A stretch of DNA of 64,000 nucleotides from Nakamurella flavida. GTDB lineage: Bacteria; Actinomycetota; Actinomycetes; Mycobacteriales; Nakamurellaceae. The position numbers and the translations under genes are program-made. The DNA is taken from contig NZ_JAUSQV010000001.1 in the NCBI RefSeq assembly GCF_030811475.1, positions 682,001-746,000 of the forward strand, given 5' to 3'. The number at the start of each line of letters is the position of its first letter. The first letter of the stretch is position 1. Shown in pieces: positions 14,102 to 40,419 of this stretch. The notes under the pieces are model-generated. The model searched no databases and was not told where the DNA came from. It saw only the letters and a program-made list of their open reading frames with translations.

Positions 14102-14110
14102 GTTCGACGG

Positions 14111-15402: not shown

Positions 15403-15718
15403 GGCGCCAGTCTGCGCCCGGTGGCCCCTCTGTCCGCCGAGGCCGGCCGAGGGACGCCCGATCGTGACCCGAGGCGACCTGACGACCGGGGGCCGGCGGC
15501 CGGGCCGGACGATGAGCCGAGGGGAGCTCGCGCCGGGGACGGCGAGTCCGACGGACCCGGACCGCTTCTCCACCCCGCCACGGAGGTAGGGGCCGCCGAC
15601 CGGGGTGTTCCTGTTCTCCCCGGCAGGTTTCATCCTGCACGTGCAGGTCCCTCTCACAGGGCCGGCCTGTGCGCTGGAACCCGAACCGCTCACCTCGACA
15701 ACCACCGATCGGAGCACC
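15403..15718. other. Divergent intergenic region with a 14-bp palindrome
   Basis: This gap of 316 bp lies between the VOC gene (leftward) and the ABM-domain gene (rightward). The only clear element is the perfect palindrome CCTGCACGTGCAGG at 15634-15647, about 72 bp before the ABM start. It could be a regulator site. I see no supported gene. Confidence 0.5.
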
Positions 15719-16021: not shown

Positions 16022-16413
16022 GGCCGGGACGATCTCGACCCGGGTGGTCGTCGAATCCGTCCGGTCCCCTGTCCCCCGGACGATGATTGACATCCCCTCG
16101 GAGCAGGACGTCCCCTCCGGGCCCCTGCGACCCGGGCCCCGGGGCTCCGTGCACACTGCGCCGACCGCATGACACCGCCTTCGCCGACGGCAACGAGCTC
16201 TGCTGGCCGTCCACTACTACCGCTGCGGGTGCTCGTCCGGTCGTGCTGATGGTCCGGCGGGGACGTTCTCGGCCGATGGTTCCCGGCCGACGATCGCGCA
16301 CGGTCGGGAACGGGCGGTGGCGCCGCGTGCTTCTGTAGCCGTGACCACCCCAGCCCCCGCGGTCCGTCCGGGACCAGGGCGGACCGGACGGACCGCATGG
16401 TTCCGGCGGGGGC
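16022..16413. other. Intergenic region, no gene seen
   Basis: This gap of 392 bp lies between the convergent ABM and MFS genes. Short open frames exist on both strands but none has a good start site or recognisable protein character. The only structured element is the hairpin near its right end, annotated separately; a weaker 7-bp hairpin lies at 16269-16290. Confidence 0.6.
16359..16396 (-). terminator. Hairpin terminator of the MFS gene
   Basis: The perfect 13-bp stem GCGGTCCGTCCGG / CCGGACGGACCGC with a 12-nt loop begins 18 nt past the MFS stop codon on the minus strand. There is no long U-tract, as is common in high-GC actinobacteria. Confidence 0.7.
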
Positions 16414-17643
16414 TCAGCCGACCGGGAAGGCGCGGCGGGCCCGGACGGCCACGACCAGCGCGACGGTGGCCAGAGCGGCCATCACCGCGGGCAGGACGAG
16501 GCCCCCGGCGGCCAGCAGCAGCGCCCCGCCGACCCCTCCGGCGAGGATGGCGAGGTTGAACGCGACGCCGAGCAGGGAGTTGGCGATGTCGGCGTTGGGG
16601 CCGGCGGCGTTGCTGATCGCGGTCTGCAGCTGGGTGGCGGCTCCGCCGTAACCGATGCCCCACAGGACGATGGCGAACAGCACCGCGACGGTCGACGAGT
16701 GTCCGACCAGCATGATCACCCCGGCGCCGCCGAACAGGCCGATGCTCGCGAGCAGCAGTGGCCGCAGGGCGCGGTCGACGAGCGCGCCGGTGATCGCGAC
16801 ACCGACGATGGCCGCGACCCCGAAGGTCACCAGGGCGGCTTCGACCGCCAGACCGTCGGCCGCCGTCCGCAGGTAGGGACCGATGTAGGTGTAGAGGAGG
16901 TTGTGGCCGACCATCCAGGCCACGATGACCACGAGAACCGCTGCGACGCTCGGGAGGCCGAGGACCCGAGCCATGGACAGCTGGGTCTCGGCCTGCTGAC
17001 CGGGAGCGTCCGGGACGAGGACGAAGGTCAGGGCGAGGGCGACCGCCACCAGCACGGACAGGATCCCGAACGACCAGCGCCAGTCGTGGGTGGCGCCCAG
17101 CCACGCTCCGAACGGGGTGCCGACCGCGAGGCCGATCGGGGTACCCAGCGAGGCGATGGACAGGGCCCGGCCGGCCAGGGTCGGCGGCGAGATGCGGCGG
17201 GCGTAACCGGCGAGCATGGCCCAGGCCAGTCCCGAGAACGCACCGGCCACGAACCGTGCCCCGAGCGAGAGCACCACGTCCGAGGAGACCGCGGTCACGG
17301 TGTTGGCCAGCAGGACTCCGGTGACCGCCACCACGAACACCGGCTTGCGCCGCAGGCCGCGGGTCAGCGCGATCGCCGGGACGGTGGCCAGGATCGTGCC
17401 GAGGGCGTAAGCGCTGACGAACTGACCGACCGTGCCCTCCGAGGTACCCAGGCCGGCGGCGATCCGGGCGAGCAGGCCGGCCGGCATCGTCTCGGTGGTG
17501 ATGAGCAGGAACCCGGTGAACGCCATCACCAGCAGCGCGGCCCACGGCAGTCGGGACGTCGCATCGGCGGTCGTGTCGCGGGTCTCGGGGGTTCCCCGGA
17601 CGGGCGACGGGGCGCGGGCACCGGTTTCATCGAGAGCGGGCAC
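16414..17643 (-). CDS. MFS transporter, sugar/drug efflux (DHA1-like)
   Basis: This major-facilitator membrane protein of 409 residues has about twelve hydrophobic segments. The first is WAALLVMAFTGFLLITTETM, with TETMPAGLL in TM1 as in AraJ/YdhP-like DHA1 exporters. A GTG start with AGGAG ten bases upstream is chosen. The N-terminal 35 residues are hydrophilic. It is divergent from the XRE/MmyB-like regulator, a common pairing in which the regulator controls the exporter. The substrate is unknown. Confidence 0.87.
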   Translation of the reverse strand: MPALDETGARAPSPVRGTPETRDTTADATSRLPWAALLVMAFTGFLLITTETMPAGLLARIAAGLGTSEGTVGQFVSAYALGTILATVPAIALTRGLRRKPVFVVAVTGVLLANTVTAVSSDVVLSLGARFVAGAFSGLAWAMLAGYARRISPPTLAGRALSIASLGTPIGLAVGTPFGAWLGATHDWRWSFGILSVLVAVALALTFVLVPDAPGQQAETQLSMARVLGLPSVAAVLVVIVAWMVGHNLLYTYIGPYLRTAADGLAVEAALVTFGVAAIVGVAITGALVDRALRPLLLASIGLFGGAGVIMLVGHSSTVAVLFAIVLWGIGYGGAATQLQTAISNAAGPNADIANSLLGVAFNLAILAGGVGGALLLAAGGLVLPAVMAALATVALVVAVRARRAFPVG

Positions 17644-17806
17644 GGGTCGGAATCTCCTGAGGTCGTGCGGGCCGAGCCGGTCGGTGGCGGCCGGCGGATC
17701 CTGTCCCTCGCAGTCGACGCCCGCGGCGCGCAGGCGGGGAGCCCCTGCCGTGGCGTGCACCGACAGAGCACCCCACGGGGACACGGGTCGACGTAGCGTC
17801 CCTCGG

Positions 17807-18709
17807 GTGGACAACCGATCCGAGGTTCGCGACTTCCTCATCTCGCGCCGCGCCAAGATCACCCCCACGCAGGCCGGTCTGCCCACGACCGGCGGTCGTC
17901 GGGTCGCGGGTCTGCGCCGGACCGAGGTCGCCGTCCTGGCCGGCGTGAGCGTCGAGTACTACGCGAAACTGGAGCGGGGGGCGCTGGGCGGCGCCTCGGC
18001 CTCCGTCCTGGACTCGTTGGCCCGGGCCCTGCAGCTGGACGACGCCGAACGGGCGCACCTGTTCCACCTCGCGCACGCCGCGGACGGAACCAGTGCCGGC
18101 ATGCGCGCCCGGGTTCGTCCCGGCCGGCGGTGGACACCGCGACCGTCCCTGTTGTGGGCACTGGACCGGTTCACCGCGCCCGCCCTCGTCCGCAACGGTC
18201 GGATGGACCTGCTGGCCACCAACCCTCTCGGCCGGGCCATGCACGACGCGCTGTACGCGACCGCCCCCGACCCTGATGAGCACCCGAACTTCGTGCGGTT
18301 CACCTTCCTGCACCAGGACGCAGCCCGGGAGTTCTACCCGGACTGGGACACCGCCGCCGGGGTCGCCGTCGCCATCCTGCGCACCGAGGCCGGTCGCGAT
18401 CCGCACGACAAGGATCTGCACGACCTCGTCGGCGAGCTGTCCACCCGCAGCCCGGACTTCGCGCGCCGCTGGAACTCCCACGACGTCCGCACCCACGGCG
18501 CCGGGACGAAGCGCTTCCACCACCGGGACGTCGGTGATCTCGATCTGGCCTACGAGAGCATGGACATGGTGGCCGATCCCGGCCTGACCCTGACCCTGTA
18601 CGCGGCCGAACCCCATTCGGCGACCGCGCACGCCCTGGACCTCCTCGCGTCCTGGACAGCGCCGGAACCGACCCGGCGGATCCACGCGCCCGTCGAGGGC
18701 ACGCCGTGA
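17807..18709 (+). CDS. XRE-family regulator with MmyB-like ligand-binding domain
   Basis: This regulator of 300 residues starts with GTG. An N-terminal helix-turn-helix (GLRRTEVAVLAGVSVEYYAKLERG, about residues 35-58, typical of the MmyB/PyrR-like group) is followed by a C-terminal MmyB-type domain that in relatives binds fatty-acid-like ligands. The domain order and length are usual for this actinobacterial family. It is divergent from the MFS exporter, whose promoter it probably controls. Nothing in the sequence names the inducer. Confidence 0.88.
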   Translation: MDNRSEVRDFLISRRAKITPTQAGLPTTGGRRVAGLRRTEVAVLAGVSVEYYAKLERGALGGASASVLDSLARALQLDDAERAHLFHLAHAADGTSAGMRARVRPGRRWTPRPSLLWALDRFTAPALVRNGRMDLLATNPLGRAMHDALYATAPDPDEHPNFVRFTFLHQDAAREFYPDWDTAAGVAVAILRTEAGRDPHDKDLHDLVGELSTRSPDFARRWNSHDVRTHGAGTKRFHHRDVGDLDLAYESMDMVADPGLTLTLYAAEPHSATAHALDLLASWTAPEPTRRIHAPVEGTP

Positions 18710-24439: not shown

Positions 24440-25858
24440 TCAGCCGGGCTGCGACCACCGCTCCCGCAGGGCCCGCGTCCAGGCCGGCCGGGGTGACACG
24501 GTCCGAGCCGGGACGGTGGGCGGCCGAACGGGCCCCTCGTCGGCGACCGACCGGGCGGCCGCGTCGACCCAGGCCAGAACGCCGTCGACGGGTGCGATGA
24601 GGGACGCCGCGGCGACCAGTGCGGCACCCCGCAGGGCCGGTTCCGCCTCGTCCAGCAGGTGCACCGGCCGACCGAGCGCGTCGGCGGCGAGCTGTGCCGC
24701 CGCCGGGTGCCGGCGCAGGACGCCGCCCGCCGCGGTCACCGGAGAGTCCGGATCGCCCCCGGTCACGGAGTCCAGCAGGGCCTGCAGCACGGCGAACGGG
24801 CGCCAGATGTCCACCGCGAAGGCGCGCACCAGGTCGGCGGGAGTGCTGCCCGGCGACAGCCCGGACACCGCGCCGAACACCCCGTCGGGGTAGTCCGGTC
24901 CCCGTCGGCCGTACACGTCGGGGACGGCCCGGACGTCCGGGAGAGCGGGTCGGTCGCCGTCGAAGGACGCCCACGGGACCGGCGTCCCGGTGAAGCCGGT
25001 GACCCACTCCAGGACGTTGCCCGCCGAAGTCACCGCACCGCCCACCGCGGTGGTCCGTTCCCCCACCCGGAAGGCCCACAGCCCGTCGGGCACCGCGGGC
25101 GAACCGGGCAGCAGGGCCCGCACGCTGCCGGACGTCCCCACGGTCAGCGCGGTGGCCCCCGGCCCGACGGCACCCAGGCCGAGGTTGTGGCACAGCCCGT
25201 CGCCGAGAGCCGGCAGCCAGGCGGCAGCCGGCGCCCACCCCGCCGCCCACGACCCGAGCCGCGGGTGGACCGGATGCGCACAGACCCCACCGAGCCGGTG
25301 CTCGTCCACCCCGAGTGCGCTCAGCACCGGGCTGGTCCAGCCGCCCGCCCACCGGTCCCACAGTCCGCTGGCCGCGGCGATCACCGGACTCCAGCCGACG
25401 TCCCGCCCGGTCAACCGGCGCGTGAGCCAACCGGCGAGGTCGGTCAGCCGGGCCGTACCCGGGACGGACACGGTGCGCACCGCGGCGACCGGGGAGCTGC
25501 TGTGCAGATAGGTGCCGCTGGTCTCCCGGGAGAAGACCCCCCGCAGGGCGTCCCGCACCTCGGCGAGGTCGGCGGCCGGCACCGTCGATTCCCAGGTGAG
25601 CACGTCGCCCAGCGGCCGGTCGTCGGCGTCGACGGCCAGCAGGGTCTGCCACTGCACGGAGACCGAGACCGCCCGCACCGCGATCGGATCGATGCCGTCG
25701 AGCAGGTCGACGACGGTGGCCAGCACCACCGCCGGGTCCGGTCGACCGTTCGTCGCCTGGGCGGCGGTGCGGTAGCGGCGCTCGTGCACCGGGCCGAGAC
25801 GTCCGTCGGCGAACCGGGCGGCCCGGACCCCGGTGCTGCCGATGTCCAGGGACAGCAC
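24440..25858 (-). CDS. Gluconokinase-like FGGY carbohydrate kinase
   Basis: This FGGY kinase has 472 residues and starts at GTG with LSLDIGSTGVRA as the first phosphate loop. LHSSSPVAAVRTV and PALGDGLCHNLGLG resemble the FGGY gluconokinase branch, with Asp220 in GDG as the likely catalytic base. It would phosphorylate a sugar acid or sugar. It is the last gene of the leftward operon Gfo/Idh - dehydrogenase - kinase. Combined with the 6-phosphogluconate-dehydrogenase-like gene in the same island, it suggests that a sugar acid is phosphorylated and then decarboxylated. No strong ribosome-binding site is seen, so the start is moderately sure. Confidence 0.85.
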   Translation of the reverse strand: MLSLDIGSTGVRAARFADGRLGPVHERRYRTAAQATNGRPDPAVVLATVVDLLDGIDPIAVRAVSVSVQWQTLLAVDADDRPLGDVLTWESTVPAADLAEVRDALRGVFSRETSGTYLHSSSPVAAVRTVSVPGTARLTDLAGWLTRRLTGRDVGWSPVIAAASGLWDRWAGGWTSPVLSALGVDEHRLGGVCAHPVHPRLGSWAAGWAPAAAWLPALGDGLCHNLGLGAVGPGATALTVGTSGSVRALLPGSPAVPDGLWAFRVGERTTAVGGAVTSAGNVLEWVTGFTGTPVPWASFDGDRPALPDVRAVPDVYGRRGPDYPDGVFGAVSGLSPGSTPADLVRAFAVDIWRPFAVLQALLDSVTGGDPDSPVTAAGGVLRRHPAAAQLAADALGRPVHLLDEAEPALRGAALVAAASLIAPVDGVLAWVDAAARSVADEGPVRPPTVPARTVSPRPAWTRALRERWSQPG

Positions 25859-25914: not shown

Positions 25915-26946
25915 TCAGTCCTGCGGCCCGTTCGGGTACATGACGGCCTTGAGGACCTCGGGGCGGCGCAGCGAACCGAGCGCATCGGCGTACTCGTCGA
26001 GACCGAAGCTGTGGGTGATGATGCCCGTCGGGTCGACCTTGCCGCCCTGCAGCAGCTTGATCGCGCGGGCGAACTCGTAGCTCTGCGCGAAGGAACCGCG
26101 CAGGGTGATCTCCCGACGGAACAGCTCGAACGGCTTGATGGAGATGGTCTCCTCCTCACCGGCCATGCCGTAGACCATCAGCGTCCCGCAGGACTTGACG
26201 AACGGGATGAGCTCCGAGAGGACCGAGATCGCACCGGTGCCGTCGATGACGATGTCGAAGCCCTCGGGAGCGATGGCGCGGAGCTCGTCGGCGGAGGCGG
26301 CGAAGTCGTTGCGGTCCACCAGCACGGTGTGGTTCGCCCCGTGCGACTTGGCCACGGCCAGCTTGGCCGCGTTGGGCGCGGCGACCGTGACGCTGCCCGC
26401 GCCGCCGTGCCCGACGAGCTGGGCCAGGATCTGGCTGGTCGGGCCGGCCCCGATGATCAGCACGTCGTCGGCCGGCGTGATGTCCATCCGGTCCAGGCCG
26501 TGCACGACGCAGGCGGTCGGCTCGATGAGCGCGGCGGCCTCCAGGCTGAGGTCCCCGATCGGGTAGCAGCGGGTCGCCTGAGCGATGGTGTGCTCGGCGA
26601 AACCACCCGGGGCCTGCACGCCGAGCGCGACACCGTTGTGGCACCAGAGGAAGTCACCGCGCTTGCAGGGCGGGCACGCGAAGCAGTAGATGGTGTTGTC
26701 CACCGAGACCAGGTCACCGATCGCGAAACCCTGGGCGCCCTCACCGAGTTCGGTGATCCGGCCGACGATCTCGTGGCCCGGGGTCAGCGGGTAGACGGGA
26801 CCGAACTCACCGATGTGCAGGTGGGCGTCGGTGCCGCAGACGCCGACGATGACGTTCTCCATGCGCACCTCGCCCGGGGCGAGGGGGCGGTCGGGGACCT
26901 CGGTGACGGAGAACTTCTCGGGCTCGGTGTAGACCACTGCGCGCAT
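25915..26946 (-). CDS. Zinc-dependent alcohol/polyol dehydrogenase (MDR family)
   Basis: This medium-chain dehydrogenase has 343 residues, with Cys37, His58 and Glu59 for catalytic zinc and Cys88, 91, 94 and 102 for structural zinc. The cofactor loop is GAGPTS where GAGPTG is usual. It is a paralogue of the dehydrogenase at 1465-2490 (shared VGVCGTD, PGHE, IYC-x2-C-x2-C and RREITxxGSFA). It would oxidise a polyol or sugar hydroxyl with NAD(P). It lies between the Gfo/Idh enzyme and the FGGY kinase in one leftward operon, 87 bp after the former. Confidence 0.88.
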   Translation of the reverse strand: MRAVVYTEPEKFSVTEVPDRPLAPGEVRMENVIVGVCGTDAHLHIGEFGPVYPLTPGHEIVGRITELGEGAQGFAIGDLVSVDNTIYCFACPPCKRGDFLWCHNGVALGVQAPGGFAEHTIAQATRCYPIGDLSLEAAALIEPTACVVHGLDRMDITPADDVLIIGAGPTSQILAQLVGHGGAGSVTVAAPNAAKLAVAKSHGANHTVLVDRNDFAASADELRAIAPEGFDIVIDGTGAISVLSELIPFVKSCGTLMVYGMAGEEETISIKPFELFRREITLRGSFAQSYEFARAIKLLQGGKVDPTGIITHSFGLDEYADALGSLRRPEVLKAVMYPNGPQD

Positions 26947-27033: not shown

Positions 27034-28041
27034 TCAGCCCTGCGGAAGGGTGACCTCGCGGCCCTGCGCGATGGACGTCTCGATGGCGACCTGGACCTCG
27101 GTGACGGCCAGCGCGTGCTCGAGGGACACCTCGGGGGCGGAACGGCCCAGGATGTTGTCGGCGAAGGCGTGCGCCATCCACGACGGGAAGCCGTGGAAGC
27201 GGCCGTCGGCGGTCGGGAAGTACGTCCGCGGCCAGACGTAGCCCTCGGGGCCGGAGATGGCGACGCTCTGGTTGGTCTGGTCGATGAGGACGGACCCGCT
27301 GGTTCCCCGGACCTCGAAGCGGAACGGGAACGGCGAGGGCAGGTTGTCCGGCAGGGCCCAGGTCGAGTCGAGCAGGGCGGTGGTGCCGTCGGCAAAGGTC
27401 AGCATGGCCTGCACGCCGTCCAGGGTGTCGATGCCCATCGATGCGAGCACCCGCTTGCTGCCCTTGGCGTAGACGGCGACGACCGGCTGGTTCGCGAACA
27501 TCATGGCCAGGTCGACGGTGTGCGACATGAAGAACCACGTCGGCGACGTCTTCGCCGCCCAGGACAGCATGCGGGTGGGCACCCGGGTGGTGCTGGACAG
27601 GAACGCGGACTGGGAGATGACGTCGCCGACCTGTCCGGCCGCCACCGCCGCCTTGGCCTCCAGGAACGCCGGGTTCCACCGGTTCTCGAACGCGGCGACG
27701 ACCAGGGATCCGCTCTCCCGGGCCGCGGCGGCGATCGCGTTCGCGGCCTCCATCGTGGTGGCCAACGGCTTCTCGATCAGCAGGTGCAGGCCGCGGCGGG
27801 CCGCCTCGACGGCCGGCTCCTCGTGCGCGAAGTCGGGGGTGGCGACGATGACCGCGTCGACCCCGGCGTCGTACAGCTCGGTGGCGGAGGCGAAGGTGGG
27901 CACGGAGAACTCGGTGGCGAACCGTTCGGCGACCGCGGTGTTCGGTTCCGCCGCGCCGGCGACCTCGATCTCGGGTACCTGCTGCAGGGCGTTCGCGAAC
28001 ATGCTTCCGCGGAGTCCGGCTCCGACAATCCCAACGCGCAC
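27034..28041 (-). CDS. Gfo/Idh/MocA-family oxidoreductase, first gene of operon
   Basis: This NAD(P)-dependent oxidoreductase has 335 residues and starts at GTG with RVGIVGAGLRGSMF. A GAGGAAGAG purine stretch just upstream supports this start. LIEKPLATT carries the family lysine and the His in FFMSHTVDL lies at the usual active-site position. In relatives it oxidises sugars, cyclitols or sugar lactols. The upstream gap holds an inverted repeat that could be a regulator site. Together with the zinc dehydrogenase it gives this operon two possible oxidation steps before the kinase. Confidence 0.87.
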   Translation of the reverse strand: MRVGIVGAGLRGSMFANALQQVPEIEVAGAAEPNTAVAERFATEFSVPTFASATELYDAGVDAVIVATPDFAHEEPAVEAARRGLHLLIEKPLATTMEAANAIAAAARESGSLVVAAFENRWNPAFLEAKAAVAAGQVGDVISQSAFLSSTTRVPTRMLSWAAKTSPTWFFMSHTVDLAMMFANQPVVAVYAKGSKRVLASMGIDTLDGVQAMLTFADGTTALLDSTWALPDNLPSPFPFRFEVRGTSGSVLIDQTNQSVAISGPEGYVWPRTYFPTADGRFHGFPSWMAHAFADNILGRSAPEVSLEHALAVTEVQVAIETSIAQGREVTLPQG

Positions 28042-28161
28042 GGTGATCTCTTCCTCGAGTGGTGTCCTGGCGGGCCGGCGACGGCACCCCGGAGGGGCCG
28101 GGCGGCGCACGACGCCGCACCCTGCTCCGCCATGGTGGCCCGGGATTGGTCCGGGCAGTAG

Positions 28162-28213: not shown

Positions 28214-29170
28214 TCACCCGGGTGGGAGCAGATCGGCCGCGCGCAGTGCGGCTCCCAGCTGACCGGCCCGGTCACCGGTGACGGCGTCGACCACCCGGGT
28301 CCCGGCCGTCCAGCGCAGTCCGTCGAGGGCGGCGCGGTAGGCGCCGGCCACCGCGCCACCCCGGGCCATCACCCCGCCGGCCAGCACCAGCACGTCCGGG
28401 GAGAGCACTGCGCACAGGTTGTCCACGCCGGTCGCGAACAACCCGGCCGCCGTGGTCAGCACTTCCGTGGCGGCCGGGTCGCCGTCTTCCACCCGGGCCT
28501 CCCACCGGGTCATCACGTCCCCGCCCGGACCGGGGCCGACGACCCGTTCGGCCGCGCGTGCCAGGGCTCGGCCGCCGACCAGCACCTCCCAGCACCCCGA
28601 CCGCCCGCACGGACACGGCGGGCCGGCCGCGTCCAGCACCATGTGGCCGATCTCCCCCGCGTCGCCGGTGCCGTCCAGCACCCGGCCGTCCAGCACGATC
28701 GCGCCGCCGATCCCCGTCCCGACGGCGACCACCAGGACCGCCCGGGCACCCCGACCGGCGCCCAGCCGGGCCTCGGCGAGGCCGGCGGCCCGGGCGTCGT
28801 TGAGCACCTGCACCGGGACGCCGGTGGCCGCACCGAGCAGCGATCCGACGTCCACGTCGGCGACCCCCAGATTGGCCGACCAGGTGACCACCCCGCCCCG
28901 CACCGTCCCGGCGATCGCCACCCCCACGGCGGCCACCTCGTCCCGGTGCGCGGCGGCCAGCGACACCAGGGCGCGCACCCGGTCCGCGGGGGCGTCGGGC
29001 AGCAGCACCCGGGTGGTCCGGGACACCGCACCGGACGGGTCCATCACCAGCGACCGCAGCGTGCTGCCGCCGAGGTCGATGCCCAGCACCGGACCCGAGC
29101 CGGGCCCGGAGGGCACCGGAGCGGGGACGACCGGGGCAGCGGTGCCGCCGGGCAGGCGCGGCTCAGCCAT
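28214..29170 (-). CDS. ROK-family sugar kinase
   Basis: This ROK protein has 318 residues and no N-terminal helix-turn-helix, so it is a kinase and not a repressor. The ATP-binding loop GIDLGGSTLRS follows an N-terminal tail of about 28 residues rich in Pro and Gly. VGTGIGGAIV, GEIGHMVLD and the zinc motif CPCGRSGCWE are typical of glucokinase-like ROK enzymes. It would phosphorylate glucose or another hexose or amino sugar. Its start overlaps the MocR stop by 8 bases, so the two are coupled. It could feed the decarboxylating operon on the other side. Confidence 0.87.
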   Translation of the reverse strand: MAEPRLPGGTAAPVVPAPVPSGPGSGPVLGIDLGGSTLRSLVMDPSGAVSRTTRVLLPDAPADRVRALVSLAAAHRDEVAAVGVAIAGTVRGGVVTWSANLGVADVDVGSLLGAATGVPVQVLNDARAAGLAEARLGAGRGARAVLVVAVGTGIGGAIVLDGRVLDGTGDAGEIGHMVLDAAGPPCPCGRSGCWEVLVGGRALARAAERVVGPGPGGDVMTRWEARVEDGDPAATEVLTTAAGLFATGVDNLCAVLSPDVLVLAGGVMARGGAVAGAYRAALDGLRWTAGTRVVDAVTGDRAGQLGAALRAADLLPPG

Positions 29171-30659
29171 GGAGGGTCACCCCGTAGTCGCGCACGGCCG
29201 ACACCGACACCCCGAAGGACTCGTCCGCAGTCGCGCCGCCCGCCCGGTCGGTCCGGTCGTGGTCCTGCCAGGCGCGGCCGAGGCGACGGACCCCCTCGGC
29301 GAAGACGGCCGGGGGAAGTCCGAAGCAGACGCGGACGAAGCCGTCCCCCGCGCCGTCCGCGGACAGCGAGTCGCCGGCCACGACCGCCACCCCGTGCCGA
29401 CGGGCGAGCTCGGCGAACGGCCCGGACGTACCGTGCGGCATCCGCAGCCAGAGGGTGACCCCGGCCTGGGGTTCCGCCCAGGAGAACCCGGGAAGGTGGG
29501 CGGCGAGCACGGGCGCCGCCGCGGCGAGCTTCGCGCGCAGCTCGGCGGCCCGCTCGTCCCGCACCTGGGCGAGCCGCTGCAGCAGCCACACCGAGAGCGC
29601 CTGCGACAGCAGGGGTGTGCCCAGATCCGCACGCACCTTGGCCCGGGCCAGCCGCTGGACCAGGCGTTCGTTGGCGCGGATCCAGCCGACCCGCAGACCG
29701 CCCCAGAAGACCTTGCTCATCGATCCGATGGTCACCACCTGCTCGGAGGCGGTCCGCGCGGCCAGGTACGGCGGCAGCGGTCCGAGGGCGAGGTGCCGGG
29801 ACGACGTGTCCTCGACGACCACCCCGTCGACGCCGGCCAGCGCCGACCCGACGTGCAGCAGATCGGTGTCCCGCACCACCCGGCCCTCGGGGCCGCCGGC
29901 CGTCATCAGGTAGGTCAGGGCCGGGCGGTTCCGGCCGATCGCCGCGATGAGCGGGTCCGCCCCGGCCCCGGCCAGCGAACGCGTGCTGCGCAGCGTCACC
30001 GGCATGGACCGGAGCAGGTCCAGCACGCCGGGGGAGGTCGGATCCTCGACCAGTGCGGTGTCCCCGGGCCCCAGGCACAGGCCGGTGAGCAGGGCCAGGG
30101 CCTGCTGGTTCCCGGTGGTGATCAGGACCTGGTCGACCGCGGTGGGGAGCCCCTCCTCGGTGAACCGGTCGGCGACCGCCGTCCGCAGCTCCGGCAGACC
30201 CATCGGGGAGTACCCGGACCTTTCCAGCAGATGGTCCATCAGATCGCCGCCCAGGGCGCCGACGCCCTCCCGGACCGCGGTGGCGGTGGGCAGCCGGGCG
30301 GTGGCCAGGTCGATGATCACCGACGAGGTGTCCAGCGCCGCGGTCGGCAGGGCGGCCGGTGCGCTCGCGCGTCCGTCCGGACCGCGCCCGGACGCACCGG
30401 CGTCCCGGTCGGCGCCGGCCACCCACGTGCCGCTGCCCCGTCGACTGACCAGCACGCCCTGGCTGCGCAGTTGGTCGTAGGCGCCGACCACCGTGCTGCG
30501 CCCGACGGCCAGGGATGCGGCCAGACCCCGTTCCGGCGGCAGCACCGTGCCCGGGGTGAGATCCCCCCGGGACACCGCTGCCGCGATGGCCTGCGCCAGC
30601 CGCTGGTAGAGCGGGCCGGGGTTTCCCGACCAGCCACCCACTGCTTCGAGGACGTTCAC
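29163..30659 (-). CDS. MocR-type regulator (GntR HTH fused to aminotransferase-like domain)
   Basis: This protein of 498 residues starts at GTG with GGAGG five bases upstream. An N-terminal GntR winged helix (about residues 15-80, including RSTVVGAYDQLRSQGVLV) is joined to a fold-type I aminotransferase domain. SMSKVFWGGLRVGW holds the lysine that binds pyridoxal 5'-phosphate in relatives. MocR proteins use the PLP-bound domain as a sensor. It is divergent from the four-gene decarboxylase operon and coupled to the ROK kinase, so it probably controls both directions. The effector is not evident. Confidence 0.9.
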   Translation of the reverse strand: MNVLEAVGGWSGNPGPLYQRLAQAIAAAVSRGDLTPGTVLPPERGLAASLAVGRSTVVGAYDQLRSQGVLVSRRGSGTWVAGADRDAGASGRGPDGRASAPAALPTAALDTSSVIIDLATARLPTATAVREGVGALGGDLMDHLLERSGYSPMGLPELRTAVADRFTEEGLPTAVDQVLITTGNQQALALLTGLCLGPGDTALVEDPTSPGVLDLLRSMPVTLRSTRSLAGAGADPLIAAIGRNRPALTYLMTAGGPEGRVVRDTDLLHVGSALAGVDGVVVEDTSSRHLALGPLPPYLAARTASEQVVTIGSMSKVFWGGLRVGWIRANERLVQRLARAKVRADLGTPLLSQALSVWLLQRLAQVRDERAAELRAKLAAAAPVLAAHLPGFSWAEPQAGVTLWLRMPHGTSGPFAELARRHGVAVVAGDSLSADGAGDGFVRVCFGLPPAVFAEGVRRLGRAWQDHDRTDRAGGATADESFGVSVSAVRDYGVTLHG

Positions 30660-30675
30660 GCCCACCTCCGGACCT

Positions 30676-30772
30676 GCCAATTCGGGTCGATCGGGCCAGA
30701 TTGGCTCTGTCTGGGTCGCCCGGGAGCCACCATGATGGCGATTGGTGGCTGGTTGGACAAGCCACCTGTCCA
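30676..30772. promoter_or_regulatory. Divergent regulatory region with two inverted repeats
   Basis: GCCAAT (30676-30681) pairs with ATTGGC (30700-30705). TGGACA (30754-30759) pairs with TGTCCA (30767-30772). The region also holds CGATTGG at 30739. It lies between the MocR gene and the four-gene operon, and the elements resemble those upstream of the oxidoreductase operon. MocR binding here is inferred from position. Confidence 0.55.
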
Positions 30773-30838
30773 CGTAGGACGAGCGGGACCAGGGCGGGGC
30801 GGAGCGTCGCCGGCACCACCGGACACACAGGAGCGAGC

Positions 30839-31720
30839 ATGCAGATAGGCCTGATCGGGCTGGGCGCGATGGGCGGCGGGATGATCCGACGCCTGGTCGG
30901 GGCCGGCCACGACGTGGTGGGCGTGGATCTGCAGGAAGCGGCCCGGGCCCGCGCCCGGGAGCACGGTGCCCGCACCGCCGCCGACCCCGCCGAACTGCTG
31001 GAGCTGATCACCGGTCCCCGCGTGGTCTGGGTGATGCTCCCCGCGGGCGAGATCACCCGGGCCACGGTCCGGCGCCTGGGTGAGGTGCTGCAGCCGGGCG
31101 ACCTCGTCGTCGACGGGGGCAACAGCGACTTCCGCGATGCACCCGGGCACGCGGCCGCCCTGGCCGAGCACGGGGTGCGCTTCGCCGACGTCGGGGTCAG
31201 CGGAGGCCAGTGGGGCTGGCAGAACGGCTACGGGCTGATGGTCGGCTGCGAGCCCGCCGACCACGCGGAGCTGGCCTGGCTGTGGGCCGCCCTCGGCACC
31301 GACGGCGGAGCCTCCCGGGTCGGTGGGGTCGGCGCCGGACACCTGGTCAAGGCCTTCCACAACGGGGTGCAGTACGGGGTGCTGCAGGCCTACGCGGAGG
31401 GGTTCGCGCTGCTCAGCGCCCACCCCGAGGTGGACCGGGTCGCCGCGATGCAGGCCTGGCAGGGCGGCAGCTCCATCCGGTCCTGGCTGCTCGAGCAGAT
31501 CGTCACCGCCCTGCAGGACAACCCCGATCTCGAGGACGTCAGCACCCGCATCTCGGACTCCGGGATGGGACGCTGGACGGCCGAGGAGGCCATCCGGCTG
31601 GCCGTCCCGACGCCGGTGATGACCGCCGCCCTGCACGCCCGTTTCGCCAGTCGCAGCGACCAGGTCGGCAACAAGCTGCTGACCGCGGCGCGCGCCCAGA
31701 TCGGAGGCCAGAAGTCATGA
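30839..31720 (+). CDS. 6-Phosphogluconate-dehydrogenase-like enzyme with Glu-to-Gln change
   Basis: This decarboxylating dehydrogenase of 293 residues has the short NAD-type Gnd length. GLIGLGAMG binds the cofactor. DGGNSDF (92-98) and GVSGG (119-123) bind substrate. GAGHLVKAFHNGVQYG keeps catalytic Lys171 and the His174-Asn175 pair. The residue three after Asn175 is Gln178, where 6-phosphogluconate dehydrogenases have the proton-donating Glu. The rest, such as GRWTAEEAI, is typical. An AGGAG site precedes the ATG. It heads a four-gene operon with ATGA/GTGA overlaps. It may act on a sugar-acid phosphate other than 6-phosphogluconate. Confidence 0.88.
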   Translation: MQIGLIGLGAMGGGMIRRLVGAGHDVVGVDLQEAARARAREHGARTAADPAELLELITGPRVVWVMLPAGEITRATVRRLGEVLQPGDLVVDGGNSDFRDAPGHAAALAEHGVRFADVGVSGGQWGWQNGYGLMVGCEPADHAELAWLWAALGTDGGASRVGGVGAGHLVKAFHNGVQYGVLQAYAEGFALLSAHPEVDRVAAMQAWQGGSSIRSWLLEQIVTALQDNPDLEDVSTRISDSGMGRWTAEEAIRLAVPTPVMTAALHARFASRSDQVGNKLLTAARAQIGGQKS

Positions 31721-32265
31721 CCGTGCCCCTGTCCGTCGGCTCCGCCCTGCGTTCCGCGGCCGCCGAACTGGTCGCGCTGGCCGACGCCGTCGACGAGAAC
31801 GAACTGGCCGCCCTGCGCGACGCGGTCCTCGCGGCGCGTCGGGTCTACTTCACCGGTGCCGGCCGTTCCGGGCTGATGGCCCGGGCGGTGGCCATGCGGA
31901 TGATGCACATCGGGTTGGCCAGTTTCGCCGTCGGCGAGATCGCCACGCCCGGCATCGCCGCGGGCGACCTGCTCGTCTGCTTCAGCGCGCGCGGCAGCGG
32001 ATCCATCACCGCACAGGCCCGGACCGCCCGGGAGCAGGACGCGGGCGTCGCGGTGGTCACCACCGCCTCCGGCACCCCGCTGACCGATCTCGCCGGCTGG
32101 ACCGTGGTCCTGCCCGTCCGCAACGGCGTGGCCACCGAGCAGCACGCCGGCTCGCTGTTCGAACAGGGTTGCCTGGTCGTCGGCGACGTCCTGTGCCGCG
32201 CGGTGCAGACCGCCCTCGGGGTGCCGACCGCCGAGCTGGACCGCCGGCACGCCAACCTGTCGTGA
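31717..32265 (+). CDS. SIS-domain sugar-phosphate isomerase (PHI/HxlB-like)
   Basis: This protein of 182 residues is like 6-phospho-3-hexuloisomerase. FTGAGRSGLMARAVAMRMMHIG binds the sugar phosphate. VCFSARGSGSI stands where the ISGSGET loop is usual. GSLFEQGCLVVGDVL carries the family Glu. It would interconvert a ketose phosphate and an aldose phosphate. It is coupled to the upstream dehydrogenase by an ATGA overlap, so the ketose phosphate from decarboxylation is its natural substrate. No hexulose-phosphate synthase (HxlA) accompanies it, so the ribulose-monophosphate pathway is not supported. Confidence 0.87.
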   Translation: MTVPLSVGSALRSAAAELVALADAVDENELAALRDAVLAARRVYFTGAGRSGLMARAVAMRMMHIGLASFAVGEIATPGIAAGDLLVCFSARGSGSITAQARTAREQDAGVAVVTTASGTPLTDLAGWTVVLPVRNGVATEQHAGSLFEQGCLVVGDVLCRAVQTALGVPTAELDRRHANLS

Positions 32266-33098
32266 GCCCTTCCATGCTGCTGGCCGCCACGGCCGACGGC
32301 GCCTTCGCCGGGGACCTGGCCGCCGCCGGGGTCGACCGCATCGTCGCCTACCACTCCAGCGTGTACCGACAGCGCGGCCTGCCGTCCGTGGCCGGACTGC
32401 TCCCCTGGGCCAGCGCCAACGAGCAGACCCTGGGGGCACTGCCGTCGGTGGTCGCCGCAGCCGGCTCCGTCCCGGTCGTCGCCACCGTCTGCGCCAACGA
32501 CGGCCTGCTGCCCGCGGACGACATGCTCGACCGCATCATCGCTCTCGGTGCCGTCGGGGTGCTGAACGCCCCGACGGTGGGCCTGTTCACCGGTCCGGTG
32601 CGCGCCGTCCTGGAGGAATCCGGCCTCGGCCTGCGGACCGAGATCGATCTGCTCGCCGCCGCCCGGGCCCGCGGCCTGGAGGCCTGGGCGTACGTCTTCG
32701 ACCCCGCCTCCGCCGTCGCCGCCCACGAGGTGGGCGCCACCGGTCTCGTGCTGCACCTGGGGATCACCGGGCACCCCGGCGACCCGAGCCGGACCGCGGC
32801 CGACGTGGTGGCCGGGGTACTGGCCGCCGTCCCGTCCACCGGGGTCCTGCTGCACGGCGGAAACCTGCGCGGGCCGGACGATCTCGTCGATCTGCTCACC
32901 GCCCTGCCCGGCGCCGAACGGGCCAGGATCACCGGATTCTTCGGGGCGTCGGCCTTCGAGTCCCGCCCGCCCGGGGTCGACGTCGGCACCGTGCTGACCG
33001 CCTGGCGCACCGCCCTGGACCCGGACGACTCGGCCGAACACCCACCCACCCGGACTCCCCCGCCCGTCCGACCCGCCCCTGACCAGGAGACCCGATGA
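32262..33098 (+). CDS. PEP-hydrolase-like TIM-barrel protein
   Basis: This TIM-barrel protein of 278 residues is of the family named after phosphoenolpyruvate hydrolase (also the C-terminal part of Tm-1-like proteins). Family marks are DRIVAYHSSVYR, SVAGLLPWASAN, VPVVATVCANDGLL, GVLNAPTVGLFTG and GLVLHLGITG. It stands alone, without the N-terminal domain seen in Tm-1. The GTG start overlaps the upstream stop (GTGA); an in-frame ATG at 32274 is an alternative. The biochemical role of the family is poorly known. In this operon an aldolase-, hydrolase- or isomerase-type step on the sugar phosphate or keto acid is possible. Confidence 0.82.
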   Translation: MSPSMLLAATADGAFAGDLAAAGVDRIVAYHSSVYRQRGLPSVAGLLPWASANEQTLGALPSVVAAAGSVPVVATVCANDGLLPADDMLDRIIALGAVGVLNAPTVGLFTGPVRAVLEESGLGLRTEIDLLAAARARGLEAWAYVFDPASAVAAHEVGATGLVLHLGITGHPGDPSRTAADVVAGVLAAVPSTGVLLHGGNLRGPDDLVDLLTALPGAERARITGFFGASAFESRPPGVDVGTVLTAWRTALDPDDSAEHPPTRTPPPVRPAPDQETR

Positions 33099-34087
33099 CC
33101 ACCGGCAGCACCGTCCTCACCGTCCCGGAGGTGGCCGCCCACCGCGGAGCGCCGCTGTATCTGTTCGTCGGGGTCAGCACGGGCGGATCGGCCGTGCACC
33201 AGGCGTTCCCGACCTGGGCCGCGCTCTTCGCCCCGGATGCGGAACTCCGCGGTGTGGACCTGCCGGAGACCGACGACCCGGCGCCGTTCCGCGCGCTGGT
33301 CGAGGCCATGCGGGACAACCCGGACGTGCACGGCGCCGTGGTGACCAGCCACAAGTTGCGGTTGTACCGGGCGTGCTCGGACCTGTTCGACCGGACCGAC
33401 CCGCTGGTCGGCCTCACCCACGAGGTCAACTCGCTGGACACCCGGAGCGGGGTGTCGGCCTTCGCCCGGGACGCCCAGTCGCTCGCCGTCCTCGACGCCC
33501 CGCTGGGTGGAGCGGCCGGCCCGGCCGCGCCGGCCCTGTGCCTGGGTTCCGGTGGCTCGGCGATCGCGTTGCTGCTGCGGTCCCGGTTGGACATCGAGGC
33601 CACGCTGACCGCGGGGCACGCCGTCCCCATGCCGGCCGACCGCACCGGGGCGCTCACCGTCGTCGGCCGCCGCGAGGCCGCGCTGGCCGAGATCGGCGAG
33701 GTGGCCGAACGCTGCGGCATCGCCGCCGACAGCTTCGCCACCGTGCTGGCCCGTGACCCGGCGCAGTACGCCGCCCTCACCAGCGCCGCCGCGCCGGGCA
33801 CCGTGATCATCAACGCGACCGGCCTGGGCAAGACCGCCCCCGGTTCCCCCCTGCCGGACGCGGCCGCCTTCCCGACGGGCAGCCTCGCCTGGGACTTCAA
33901 CTACCGCGGCCCGCTGACCTTCCTGGCCCAGGCCCGGGAGGCCGGCGTGCCCACCGAGGACGGCTGGCTCTACTTCCTCGCCGGCTGGAGCTGTGCGCTG
34001 GCCGCCATCACCGGAGGCGACGCCGCCGACCTGCTGGCCGCGGTCAGCCGGGTCTCCGACCCGTTCCGGCCGACCCCGACCGGCTGA
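33095..34087 (+). CDS. Shikimate-dehydrogenase-like oxidoreductase
   Basis: This protein of 330 residues has the AroE fold. AVVTSHK (81-87) keeps the catalytic Lys87 of the VTxPxK motif. The NADP loop is LGSGGSAI (150-157) and INATGLGK stands for the NATSxGM segment. The NTD motif that carries the catalytic Asp in AroE is not plainly present; Asp126 in FARDAQSL may replace it. It therefore binds NAD(P) but probably a substrate other than shikimate. It is coupled by ATGA to the TIM barrel and has an AGGAG site. It is the last gene of the operon, and the reaction is unknown. Confidence 0.8.
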   Translation: MTTGSTVLTVPEVAAHRGAPLYLFVGVSTGGSAVHQAFPTWAALFAPDAELRGVDLPETDDPAPFRALVEAMRDNPDVHGAVVTSHKLRLYRACSDLFDRTDPLVGLTHEVNSLDTRSGVSAFARDAQSLAVLDAPLGGAAGPAAPALCLGSGGSAIALLLRSRLDIEATLTAGHAVPMPADRTGALTVVGRREAALAEIGEVAERCGIAADSFATVLARDPAQYAALTSAAAPGTVIINATGLGKTAPGSPLPDAAAFPTGSLAWDFNYRGPLTFLAQAREAGVPTEDGWLYFLAGWSCALAAITGGDAADLLAAVSRVSDPFRPTPTG

Positions 34088-34141
34088 GCCCGGGCGGGCC
34101 GCTTCACCGGCCCCGCACCCGGGGTGATCGATGCTCAACCC

Positions 34142-35074
34142 ATGTGCACCCGCATCTTCTGGTCCGACAACCCCATGGCGCCCGTGGTGTCCCGCACCAT
34201 GGACTGGGCGATCAGCGACGAGCCCGACCTGTGGAGCCTGCCGGCCGGGCTGACGCGCGATTGCGGCGACCCGGCCCTGCTCAGCTGGACCTCGCGGTAC
34301 CGGTCCGTCGCGCTGAGCATGTGGGGTTCGGGAACCTGTGACGGGATGAACGAGAAGGGGCTGGCTGCCCACGCCCTCTACCTCGACGTCTCCGAATGGG
34401 AGCCGGCCGACGACCGCCCCGCGGTCAGCAACCTGATGTGGGTGCAGTACATCCTCGACAGCTTCGCCACCGTCGCGGAGGTGGTCGCCGCCGCCGCGGA
34501 CGTCCGCATCGTGTCCATCCCCTTCCGCGGTCAGCAGATGGGCTGCCACGTCGCGGTCGAGGACCCCAGTGGCGACTCCGCGATCCTCGAGCCGCTCGAC
34601 GGCAGGCTCGTCGTCCACCACGGACGGCACTTCCCGGTGATGGCCAACTCCCCGTCGTTCGACGAGCAGCTGGCCAACCTCGAGCGCTACCGACCGTTCG
34701 GCGGGGAGCTGCCCCCGCCCGGGGACATCTCGTCGCTGGACCGGTTCGTCCGGGCCAACTACTTCCTGCACTACCTGCCCGAGCCGACCTCGGTGGAGGA
34801 GGCGACCGCCCGGGTGTTCAGCCTGGCCAACAACGTGGCCGTCCCCGCCGGGTCGCCCTACGCCGACAACGGCGGGGTCTACCCGACCTGGTGGACCGCG
34901 GGAGCGAATCTGGCCGACCGGGTGTACTACTTCTGGTCCACCGAGAGCCCCAACCTCACCTGGGTCGACCTCAACGAGCTGGACGCCCCCGGCGTGATGG
35001 CCCTGGACCCGCGCGGCACCGGGCTGGTCGGGGACATCGGCGGTTCACTCGCTCCGGCGGCGCTGACGTACTGA
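34142..35074 (+). CDS. Ntn hydrolase of the choloylglycine hydrolase / penicillin V acylase family
   Basis: This protein of 310 residues starts MCTRIFW. Removing Met exposes Cys2, the N-terminal nucleophile of this amidase family, and this decides the start over the in-frame GTG 18 bases upstream. SRTMDW carries the conserved Arg and Asp, followed by GMNEKGLAAHALYLD and the Asn in VMANSPSFDEQL. It would hydrolyse a linear amide such as a bile-salt conjugate, penicillin V or an acyl-homoserine lactone. There is no signal peptide. It is transcribed after the four-gene operon but is separated by 54 bp and may be independent. Confidence 0.85.
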   Translation: MCTRIFWSDNPMAPVVSRTMDWAISDEPDLWSLPAGLTRDCGDPALLSWTSRYRSVALSMWGSGTCDGMNEKGLAAHALYLDVSEWEPADDRPAVSNLMWVQYILDSFATVAEVVAAAADVRIVSIPFRGQQMGCHVAVEDPSGDSAILEPLDGRLVVHHGRHFPVMANSPSFDEQLANLERYRPFGGELPPPGDISSLDRFVRANYFLHYLPEPTSVEEATARVFSLANNVAVPAGSPYADNGGVYPTWWTAGANLADRVYYFWSTESPNLTWVDLNELDAPGVMALDPRGTGLVGDIGGSLAPAALTY

Positions 35075-37256: not shown

Positions 37257-37276
37257 CATGGCACTCTGGTGCCATG
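37257..37276. promoter_or_regulatory. Inverted repeat upstream of the hydrolase-ABC fusion gene
   Basis: CATGGCAC TCTG GTGCCATG is an 8-bp perfect inverted repeat with a 4-nt centre, 60 bp before the chosen start of the fusion gene. It may be a regulator site or a small RNA hairpin. It also contains ATG codons, one of which opens an in-frame extension of the fusion protein. Confidence 0.45.
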
Positions 37277-37335
37277 GCGCTCACCGCGGCGGGGATCGAT
37301 CCCGCACCTCAGCACACCGCCCGTCGAGCCGACCG

Positions 37336-40415
<3,080 letters not shown>

Positions 40416-40419
<4 letters not shown>

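What the first reader, a model, noticed from the sequence alone, without database searches (positions are those of the whole stretch)
30839..34087. Four-gene fully overlapping operon: 6PGDH variant, SIS isomerase, PEP-hydrolase-like TIM barrel, shikimate-DH-like enzyme
The genes are linked by ATGA, GTGA and ATGA overlaps, so they act together. The set joins an oxidative decarboxylase, an aldose-ketose phosphate isomerase, a TIM barrel of poorly known function and an AroE-fold oxidoreductase. None of the textbook pathways (pentose phosphate, RuMP, shikimate, Entner-Doudoroff) uses this set. With the gluconokinase-like FGGY and ROK kinases and two oxidoreductases next door, the parsimonious reading is sugar to acid, phosphorylation, decarboxylation and isomerisation, with two unexplained steps.
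Basis: partly seen in the sequence, partly recalled or inferred. Interest (0 to 1): 0.75.

Follow-up and report, generated by a model that had tools for sequence, protein, structure and literature searches.

The report
Unassigned sugar-breakdown operon in actinobacteria
A tightly packed set of four enzyme genes, with a matching set read the other way, forms a rare but conserved bacterial operon that probably breaks down an unidentified sugar-like compound, using an altered sugar-acid dehydrogenase and a little-known relative of a shikimate-pathway enzyme.

Summary
Four genes (30839-34087) overlap by 4 nt at each junction and encode a short 6PGDH relative, a hexuloisomerase-like SIS protein, a PF09370 TIM barrel and an AroE-fold protein. 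The same order, divergent from MocR-ROK-GFO-ZnADH, occurs in Nakamurella leprariae and Sediminivirga luteola, and as far as ROK, where its contig ends, in an actinobacterial MAG. The first two also carry a ribose-type ABC importer. All nine corresponding junctions there overlap too.

New results: (1) The 6PGDH-like enzyme is probably not a 6-phosphogluconate decarboxylase. The general-acid Glu190 is Gln in 4 of 4 operon copies and Glu in 30 of 30 compared 6PGDHs, and the genome has a normal copy elsewhere. (2) The AroE-like protein belongs to a family without its own Pfam or NCBIfam model, found under the names of about a dozen phyla. Its other branch often sits in sugar clusters with a cupin isomerase, FGGY kinase, 2-hydroxyacid dehydrogenase and KDPG aldolase. 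(3) The TIM barrel lacks the UPF0261 partner common in its family.

Best reading: an undescribed carbohydrate-catabolic pathway. Substrate and reactions are inferred, not shown. The searches aimed at the gene set found no description. The sugar-acid decarboxylation scheme is only partly supported.

The parts
30839..31720 (+). 6PGDH-like beta-hydroxyacid dehydrogenase (short form), with Gln178 in place of the general-acid Glu190 of 6PGDH and Met243 in place of Glu
31717..32265 (+). SIS-domain sugar-phosphate isomerase, 6-phospho-3-hexuloisomerase-like (HxlB 154 bits, cut-off 160)
   Evidence: ATGA overlap with the gene before
32262..33098 (+). TIM-barrel protein, PF09370 'PEP_hydrolase', closest solved structure 2p10; start GTG 32262 or ATG 32274
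   Evidence: GTGA overlap with the gene before
33095..34087 (+). AroE-fold oxidoreductase of a family without its own Pfam or NCBIfam model
   Evidence: ATGA overlap with the gene before
30660..30838 (.). divergent control region between the MocR-type regulator and the four-gene operon
30700..30710 (+). ATTGGCTCTGT; the pattern ATTGGCTCTRT also lies in this region of L028 and L029 (not exactly in L031); candidate operator, binding not shown
   Evidence: one match in the 64-kb window, 0.02 expected
29163..30659 (-). GntR/MocR-type regulator with aminotransferase-like domain (closest NCBIfam model MocR_like_YczR, 370.7 bits, cut-off 487.4); start GTG 30659 chosen by comparison with L031
28214..29170 (-). 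ROK-family sugar kinase
27034..28065 (-). GFO/IDH/MocA dehydrogenase, inositol 2-dehydrogenase-like (129 bits, cut-off 355); 85 and 77% identity to the L028 and L029 copies; exact start not settled
25915..26946 (-). zinc-dependent dehydrogenase, closest NCBIfam model IolM scyllo-inosose 3-dehydrogenase (157 bits, cut-off 450)
24440..25858 (-). FGGY-family kinase; ortholog beside the ABC importer genes in N. leprariae (47%), none found at E 1e-20 in the S. luteola or MAG genome
34124..35074 (+). CBAH-family linear amide hydrolase 36 nt downstream; no relative of it found in L028, L029 or L031, so probably not part of the operon

Best explanation
The four genes are one arm of a divergent carbohydrate-catabolism island with a MocR-type regulator: (FGGY)-ZnADH-GFO-ROK-MocR read leftwards, PGDH-SIS-TIM barrel-AroE-like read rightwards. 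Shown: gene order, its conservation, overlapping junctions, a shared candidate operator, folds and active-site residues.

Inferred mechanism: a neutral monosaccharide or polyol enters by a ribose-type (CUT2) importer. The GFO and Zn enzymes oxidise it to a keto or dicarbonyl sugar. The ROK kinase (and FGGY in Nakamurella) phosphorylates it. The AroE-like enzyme reduces one carbonyl, as its fold relative 5-ketofructose reductase does. The hexuloisomerase-like SIS protein moves the remaining carbonyl to give a 2-ketose phosphate. The altered PGDH acts as a 3-hydroxyacid dehydrogenase on a substrate other than 6-phosphogluconate, and the TIM barrel does a carbon-carbon cleavage on the product.

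A specific, falsifiable version of the middle steps: 3-keto-hexose 6-phosphate -> (AroE-like) 3-hexulose 6-phosphate -> (SIS) fructose 6-phosphate, which would give the SIS protein its canonical reaction. The confidence given is for 'undescribed carbohydrate-catabolic pathway in which the PGDH-like enzyme is not a 6-phosphogluconate dehydrogenase'. For the specific middle steps it is about 0.15.
For: Synteny and overlapping junctions in three other assemblies. ABC importer genes (PF00005, PF02653, binding protein) beside ZnADH in N. leprariae and S. luteola; the binding protein's solved relatives are ribose- and allose-binding proteins; the class name CUT2 is recalled. PGDH site: Gln178 and Met243 in 4 of 4 operon copies, Glu in 30 of 30 others; all 4 under the TIGR00872 cut-off of 297.2 (270.0, 271.8, 273.1, 290.1) while the genome's own second copy scores 344.3. 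Role of Glu190 as carboxylate ligand and general acid: passages of PMC8900737. AroE fold, VIA Z 25.2 (rmsd 3.3, 276 residues) to 3tnl and 23.7 (rmsd 3.7, 272) to 7cok 5-ketofructose reductase; T84, H86, K87 and D126 invariant in 58 sequences. A SIS gene directly before an AroE-like gene also in a Solirubrobacterales MAG. The wider AroE-like family sits in sugar clusters: within 8 kb a cupin isomerase in 52, FGGY in 50, 2-hydroxyacid dehydrogenase in 48 and KDPG aldolase in 27 of 87 loci; the same scan reported none of these four in 20 control regions, though for FGGY that zero is too low (see against).
Against: No reaction was measured and no substrate is known. The fold of the TIM barrel is generic: after 2p10 (Z 29.3) the other 49 listed entries tie at Z 16.1-17.3, so 'C-C cleavage' rests on analogy. 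The PGDH keeps the SGG motif, Lys, His and Asn of 6PGDH and passes the subfamily cut-off NF007161, so a 6-phosphogluconate-like sugar acid phosphate is not excluded. The AroE-like proteins of the operon lie in a separate branch from the 64 sequences that include the cupin-isomerase clusters, so the two cluster types may do different chemistry. The control scan missed an FGGY-family gene at window 5665-7113 that Pfam finds, so single-sequence neighbour counts and controls are both undercounts. The window has no importer beside the operon. A MocR-type regulator may sense an amino compound (recalled), which would point elsewhere.
Confidence: 0.55

Rival explanations
1. One reading: a sugar is oxidised to a sugar acid, phosphorylated, oxidatively decarboxylated by the 6PGDH variant to a pentulose phosphate and isomerised by the SIS protein; the Gln and Met changes only adapt the enzyme to another stereoisomer of the acid.
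For: Closest family is short-form 6PGDH, with Lys, His, Asn and SGG motif kept. Kinases and sugar dehydrogenases lie next door. The other branch of the AroE-like family shares clusters with phosphotriesterase-family proteins nearest to phospho-furanose lactonase (PTE or PTE2 in 7 of 87 loci) and with KDPG aldolase, i.e. with acid chemistry.
Against: Loss of the general acid in 4 of 4 copies and of a second Glu; equivalog cut-off missed by all 4. Leaves the TIM barrel and AroE-like enzyme without a role.
Confidence: 0.2
2. Cyclitol route like the Thermotoga inositol pathway (that pathway is recalled): GFO and the IolM-like Zn enzyme make a diketo-cyclitol, the TIM barrel opens the ring by carbon-carbon hydrolysis to a 5-keto-hexonate, the AroE-like enzyme reduces it, ROK phosphorylates, PGDH and SIS finish.
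For: The GFO and Zn enzymes have inositol 2-dehydrogenase and IolM as their best NCBIfam matches and are well conserved; a paper on L-glucose shows 5-keto-L-gluconate as a real intermediate of sugar catabolism (PMC12632266, abstract and passages).
Against: Both scores are far below the curated cut-offs (129 of 355; 157 of 450). The importer's binding protein resembles ribose and allose systems. PF09370 is not shown to hydrolyse C-C bonds.
Confidence: 0.15
3. A ribulose-monophosphate or related formaldehyde pathway using the hexuloisomerase-like SIS protein.
For: SIS scores 154 against a cut-off of 160 for 6-phospho-3-hexuloisomerase.
Against: No hexulose-6-phosphate synthase in the operon; the genome's best match is 131 bits against a cut-off of 200 and lies elsewhere. 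GFO, ROK and AroE-like genes have no place in it.
Confidence: 0.03
4. A biosynthetic operon for an amino-sugar or cyclitol natural product, with a ROK kinase and an AroE-fold enzyme as in aminoshikimate pathways (recalled comparison).
For: ROK kinase, GFO and AroE-fold genes together; a MocR regulator; an amide hydrolase just downstream in the window.
Against: Importer genes adjoin the set in two relatives; no aminotransferase enzyme or assembly-line gene was recognised, by eye only, among the crude gene calls around it (no family scan of all neighbours was run).
Confidence: 0.07

Closest known systems
Short-form 6-phosphogluconate dehydrogenase (TIGR00872 / NF007161; e.g. PDB 8ihe)
   Same: Fold family, length, dinucleotide motif, SGG loop, Lys-x-x-His-Asn catalytic stretch; about 50% identity to actinobacterial 6PGDHs
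   Different: Glu190 is Gln and the Glu of DSGEGRW is Met in all four operon copies; under the equivalog cut-off
6-phospho-3-hexuloisomerase HxlB (PDB 1jeo, 1m3s)
   Same: SIS family, size, C-terminal HANL and GSLFEQ stretches shared with 1m3s
   Different: Just under the curated cut-off; no partner hexulose-6-phosphate synthase in the operon
PF09370 'PEP_hydrolase' / Tm-1 C-terminal TIM barrel (PDB 2p10)
   Same: 150.4 bits; conserved residues shared across 15 aligned members
   Different: UPF0261, found in 7 of 7 neighbour genes tested beside other PF09370 genes (of 13 regions fetched), is missing from all 4 operon-bearing genomes
5-ketofructose reductase and shikimate/quinate dehydrogenases (PDB 7cok, 3tnl, 3jyo)
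   Same: AroE fold over about 275 residues; conserved Lys and Asp
   Different: 14-21% identity in the structural rows; the single protein has no Pfam or NCBIfam hit at E 0.001, and only 10 of 58 family members touch PF01488, at best E 0.0038
Thermotoga-type inositol catabolism (IolG, IolM)
   Same: Pair of a GFO and a Zn-dependent dehydrogenase whose best NCBIfam matches are inositol 2-dehydrogenase and IolM
   Different: Both far below cut-off; the later enzymes of that pathway were not searched for; kinase, PGDH and SIS steps added

Membership tests
6-phosphogluconate dehydrogenase (decarboxylating) | Equivalog score over TIGR00872 cut-off 297.2 | tested here: not met
   270.0, 271.8, 273.1, 290.1 bits for the 4 operon copies; the genome's other copy 344.3
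6-phosphogluconate dehydrogenase (decarboxylating) | General acid Glu190 | tested here: not met
   Gln in 4 of 4 operon copies, Glu in 30 of 30 others; role of Glu190 from passages of PMC8900737
6-phosphogluconate dehydrogenase (decarboxylating) | SGG loop and Lys183-His186-Asn187-Tyr191 | tested here: met
   VSGG and K..HN...Y present in all four
6-phosphogluconate dehydrogenase (decarboxylating) | Subfamily score over NF007161 cut-off 271 | tested here: met
   319.7, 324.5, 328.6, 335.3 bits
RuMP pathway | HxlB over cut-off 160 | tested here: not met
   154 bits, a narrow miss
RuMP pathway | Hexulose-6-phosphate synthase in operon or genome over cut-off 200 | tested here: not met
   best 131 bits, elsewhere in the genome
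PF09370 PEP_hydrolase | Score over gathering cut-off 33.8 | tested here: met
   150.4 bits
Tm-1-like UPF0261 + TIM-barrel pair | UPF0261 protein or domain present | tested here: not met
   0 of 4 operon-bearing genomes, one of them a MAG of untold completeness; 7 of 7 tested neighbours of other PF09370 genes are UPF0261
Shikimate dehydrogenase AroE fold | AroE fold of the model | tested here: met
   pLDDT 93.3; VIA Z 25.2, rmsd 3.3, 276 residues to 3tnl
Shikimate dehydrogenase AroE fold | Catalytic Asp and Lys | tested here: inconclusive
   K87 and D126 invariant in 58 sequences; the Asp aligns with an Asp of 3tnl; the catalytic role and the Lys equivalence are from motif recall
Shikimate dehydrogenase (TIGR00507, biosynthetic) | Score over the family cut-off 200.2 | tested here: not met
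   no NCBIfam hit for the protein; the genome's best match lies elsewhere, at 127 bits, itself under the cut-off
Gluconokinase FGGY | TIGR01314 cut-off 648.55 | tested here: not met
   59.1 bits
Thermotoga-type inositol pathway | IolG and IolM over cut-off | tested here: not met
   129 of 355 and 157.3 of 450 bits
Thermotoga-type inositol pathway | Activity on inositols | not testable with these tools
   needs enzyme or growth assays

The most novel reading that the evidence does not exclude
An undescribed carbohydrate-catabolic pathway exists in two toolkits. Its signature enzyme is a new AroE-fold keto-sugar (phosphate) oxidoreductase family found under the names of about a dozen bacterial phyla. 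In the toolkit seen here each other step is done by an unrelated protein: SIS for the cupin isomerase, a 6PGDH offshoot for the 2-hydroxyacid dehydrogenase, ROK for FGGY, and the PF09370 barrel for KDPG aldolase. This would make PF09370, the family of the plant virus-resistance protein Tm-1's C-terminal domain, a carbon-carbon lyase, and would add a 6PGDH branch that no longer uses the decarboxylase acid.
Probability: 0.25. Interest if true: 0.72.

Novelty: new variant of a known kind. Interest (0 to 1): 0.5.

Why it matters
If right, this is a sugar pathway missing from the textbooks. It would give testable functions to two enzyme families that lack one: the AroE-like family, which has no Pfam or NCBIfam model of its own yet occurs widely, and the PF09370 barrel. 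It would also warn that proteins passing the phosphogluconate dehydrogenase subfamily model can lack a residue the reaction depends on. The operon is small, self-contained and present in named isolated strains, so the question can be tested directly.

Tried and rejected
Gluconokinase route: rejected as a membership claim, because FGGY scores 59.1 of 648.55 bits and no ortholog was found in two of three related genomes.

RuMP pathway: rejected.

Chance neighbourhood: rejected by synteny in three assemblies. The AroE-like gene alone is more common: 16 of 296 class genomes including the window's own; none of the 18 other loci from that search shows a SIS or PF09370 hit within its flanks of about 1.5 kb.

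Finding more operon copies. The scan that gave L028, L029 and L031 works by short peptide patterns and kept 80 of 91 relatives, so copies can have been missed. By the PF09370 protein: 26 of 396 phylum genomes match, but the best besides the own copy is 42% identical. Of 13 such regions fetched, the neighbour gene was tested in 7 and is UPF0261 in all 7; the other 6 were not tested, and in L147 no such neighbour was seen by eye. By the GFO protein: 2 of 61 relatives (own and one same-genus genome) and 3 of 396 phylum genomes, the other two at 32-33% identity.

Fold of the TIM barrel as a guide to chemistry: inconclusive, generic barrels tie after 2p10.

Inverted repeats in the control region: present but not shared between loci; only ATTGGCTCTRT recurs, in 3 of 4 loci.

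Literature: of ten searches, four were aimed at the gene set (two returned nothing, 25 and 46 only papers that, by title and start of abstract, are unrelated), three at family names, the rest at 5-ketofructose, inositol intermediates and Glu190. In the lgu cluster paper PMC12632266 the word shikimate does not occur.

Weak points of counts: the neighbour counts use single-sequence phmmer hits within 8 kb; family names were confirmed for a few representatives only. ABC, SDR and Zn-ADH hits are unspecific (ABC also in 9 of 20 control regions). The controls were 13 regions chosen for PF09370, 3 chosen for GFO, one other own-genome stretch and three overlapping-free or overlapping stretches of the window, not random ones; one of them (window 2001-18000) does hold an FGGY gene that the scan missed. 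For the tree 4 of the 80 loci (L095, L099, L104, L105) were dropped as short; alignment A1 holds the window and 57 of the 76 remaining loci.

None of this changes the odds.

Full report
OBSERVATION. PGDH-like 30839-31720, SIS 31717-32265, PF09370 protein 32262-33098 and AroE-like 33095-34087 overlap by ATGA, GTGA and ATGA. Family scans name the first three: 6PGDH short form, hexuloisomerase-like SIS and PEP_hydrolase. The fourth matches no Pfam or NCBIfam model alone at E 0.001. A profile of the window protein and 57 relatives matches shikimate dehydrogenases (3tnl, E 7.1e-11) and 5-ketofructose reductase (7cok, E 2.4e-9). A confident model (pLDDT 93.3) has the AroE fold: VIA Z 25.2, rmsd 3.3 over 276 residues to 3tnl, and Z 23.7, rmsd 3.7 over 272 to 7cok. 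On the other strand lie a MocR-type regulator, a ROK kinase, a GFO dehydrogenase, a Zn-dependent dehydrogenase and an FGGY kinase.

CONSERVATION. A pattern-based scan of a collection of one genome for each of 84,980 species found 91 stretches encoding a relative of the AroE-like protein, of which 80 were kept. In two of them, Nakamurella leprariae (L028) and Sediminivirga luteola (L029), the order ZnADH-GFO-ROK-MocR | PGDH-SIS-PF09370-AroE-like is the same as in the window. In an actinobacterial MAG (L031) the contig ends 106 nt past ROK and the six genes present agree. All nine junctions of the four-gene arm overlap in these three loci: seven by ATGA or GTGA, one by 1 nt, one by 17 nt. So close coupling is kept while the letters change. 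N. leprariae and S. luteola carry ABC importer genes beside ZnADH. N. leprariae also has the FGGY ortholog next to them; none was found in the S. luteola or MAG genome. S. luteola adds an inositol-monophosphatase-family gene that overlaps AroE-like by GTGA. The operon is sporadic: its GFO ortholog is in 2 of 61 close relatives, both in the window's genus, of which 17 genomes including the own were searched. In 396 phylum genomes only the own copy is a clear ortholog; two other matches are 32-33% identical. The window's genus is that of N. leprariae by inference: the same-genus genome G662 holds a contig of the same length, 79,889 bases, with the same genes.

CONTROL REGION. The pattern ATTGGCTCTRT occurs between the divergent arms in the window, L028 and L029, not exactly in L031. 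It occurs once in the 64-kb window, where 0.02 is expected. It is a candidate MocR operator; binding is not shown.

THE DEHYDROGENASE. In 6PGDH, Glu190 binds the substrate carboxylate and is the general acid after decarboxylation, while Lys183 is the base (passages of PMC8900737). In the operon protein the Lys-x-x-His-Asn stretch and the SGG loop are kept, but the Glu is Gln178. This is so in 4 of 4 operon copies, while 30 of 30 compared 6PGDHs have Glu: the 29 non-self loci given by a 197-genome class search and the genome's own second copy. The Glu of DSGEGRW is Met in the same 4 and Glu in the same 30. All four copies miss the TIGR00872 equivalog cut-off, whereas the genome's other copy passes it; all pass the broader subfamily model NF007161. 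So the enzyme is a 6PGDH offshoot. Its reaction is probably changed, though a related sugar acid phosphate cannot be excluded.

THE AROE-LIKE FAMILY. 38 columns, T84, H86, K87, E110 and D126 among them, are invariant in 58 sequences. A tree of 77 sequences puts the four operon proteins with one Planosporangium protein in a clade (100/99), inside a 13-sequence actinobacterial group. A fully supported branch (100/99) separates this group from 64 others. The record titles of the 77 name eleven phyla and a Nealsonbacteria bin; many are MAGs. In 87 loci (the 80 plus 7 regions fetched), within 8 kb of the AroE-like gene, a GPI-cupin isomerase is found in 52, FGGY kinase in 50, a 2-hydroxyacid dehydrogenase in 48 and KDPG/KHG aldolase in 27. 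The same scan reported none of these four in 20 control regions, but it missed one FGGY gene there, so counts and controls are lower bounds. The cupin gene directly follows in 39 of 84 loci with enough sequence. In a Solirubrobacterales MAG a SIS gene directly precedes the AroE-like gene, 3 nt before its first possible start codon. The operon thus looks like a version of a sugar-processing module in which kinase, isomerase, acid dehydrogenase and TIM-barrel roles are filled by other families. That role-by-role match is my inference, and the tree shows that the two branches are well separated and may differ in substrate.

THE TIM BARREL. It is a PF09370 member (150.4 bits) that shares the family's conserved residues. 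Elsewhere in the phylum PF09370 genes often neighbour UPF0261 genes: 7 of 7 neighbours tested, of 13 regions fetched. UPF0261 was not found in any of the four operon-bearing genomes. Fold comparison gives 2p10 and then generic barrels. The paper on the origin of plant Tm-1-like genes (PMC5028733, start of abstract in search listings only) calls the N-terminal UPF0261 domain uncharacterised and the C-terminal one a TIM-barrel domain.

INTERPRETATION. The gene set, the importer and the company of the AroE-like family support catabolism of a neutral sugar-like compound. Two oxidations, phosphorylation, reduction of a second carbonyl, carbonyl migration, and a side or end branch by the PGDH-like enzyme and the barrel are inferred. 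A cyclitol route is possible but both inositol-type scores are far under cut-off. Four searches aimed at the gene set and three at family names found no description (26, 86, 87), in a library that lacks most subscription journals. One precedent was useful: an AroE-family enzyme that reduces 5-ketofructose (PMC7954740, passages); the same passages report a second, related shikimate-dehydrogenase-like protein that was inactive on it.

VERDICT. Real, conserved, uncharacterised as far as could be searched, and readily testable. The individual parts belong to known folds and, but for the AroE-like family, to named families, so I rate it a new variant of a known kind, interest 0.5.

Noticed in passing
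window 1-8000 (own genome C1:680000-690000, L194): A second sugar cluster: ABC importer genes related to those of L029, a Zn-dependent dehydrogenase related to the operon's, a LacI-like regulator (by eye), an FGGY-family kinase (PF00370) and a DeoC/LacD-family aldolase. It could supply the importer that the operon lacks in this genome.
   Followed up: partly
window 34124-35074: A choloylglycine-hydrolase-family amide hydrolase starts 36 nt after the AroE-like gene and may be co-transcribed, but no relative of it was found in L028, L029 or L031.
   Followed up: partly
window 37258-40419: One open frame of 1053 residues joins an X-Pro dipeptidyl-peptidase S15 domain (residues 90-225) to an ABC-transporter ATPase domain (751-891).
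   Followed up: partly
L085 9458-10918: A SIS gene directly before an AroE-like gene in a Solirubrobacterales MAG, outside any sugar cluster that I recognised.
   Followed up: partly
L203 6088-12972 (same-genus genome G662): A paralog of the GFO dehydrogenase (46%) lies with a ROK-family gene, a SIS-domain gene and a DeoR-type regulator and importer-like genes (by eye): perhaps a related sugar pathway.
   Followed up: partly
L154, L155, L156, L067: AroE-like genes next to phosphotriesterase-family proteins; the one tested (L067) is nearest to phospho-furanose lactonase, under its cut-off, hinting at lactone chemistry in part of the family.
   Followed up: partly
own genome C1:422321-422926 (L108): A hexulose-6-phosphate-synthase-like gene (131 bits, cut-off 200) away from the operon.
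   Followed up: no
L147 6609-7445: A PF09370 gene in another actinobacterial genome without a UPF0261 neighbour seen by eye; importer-like genes and a sugar-isomerase-like TIM barrel lie nearby.
   Followed up: no
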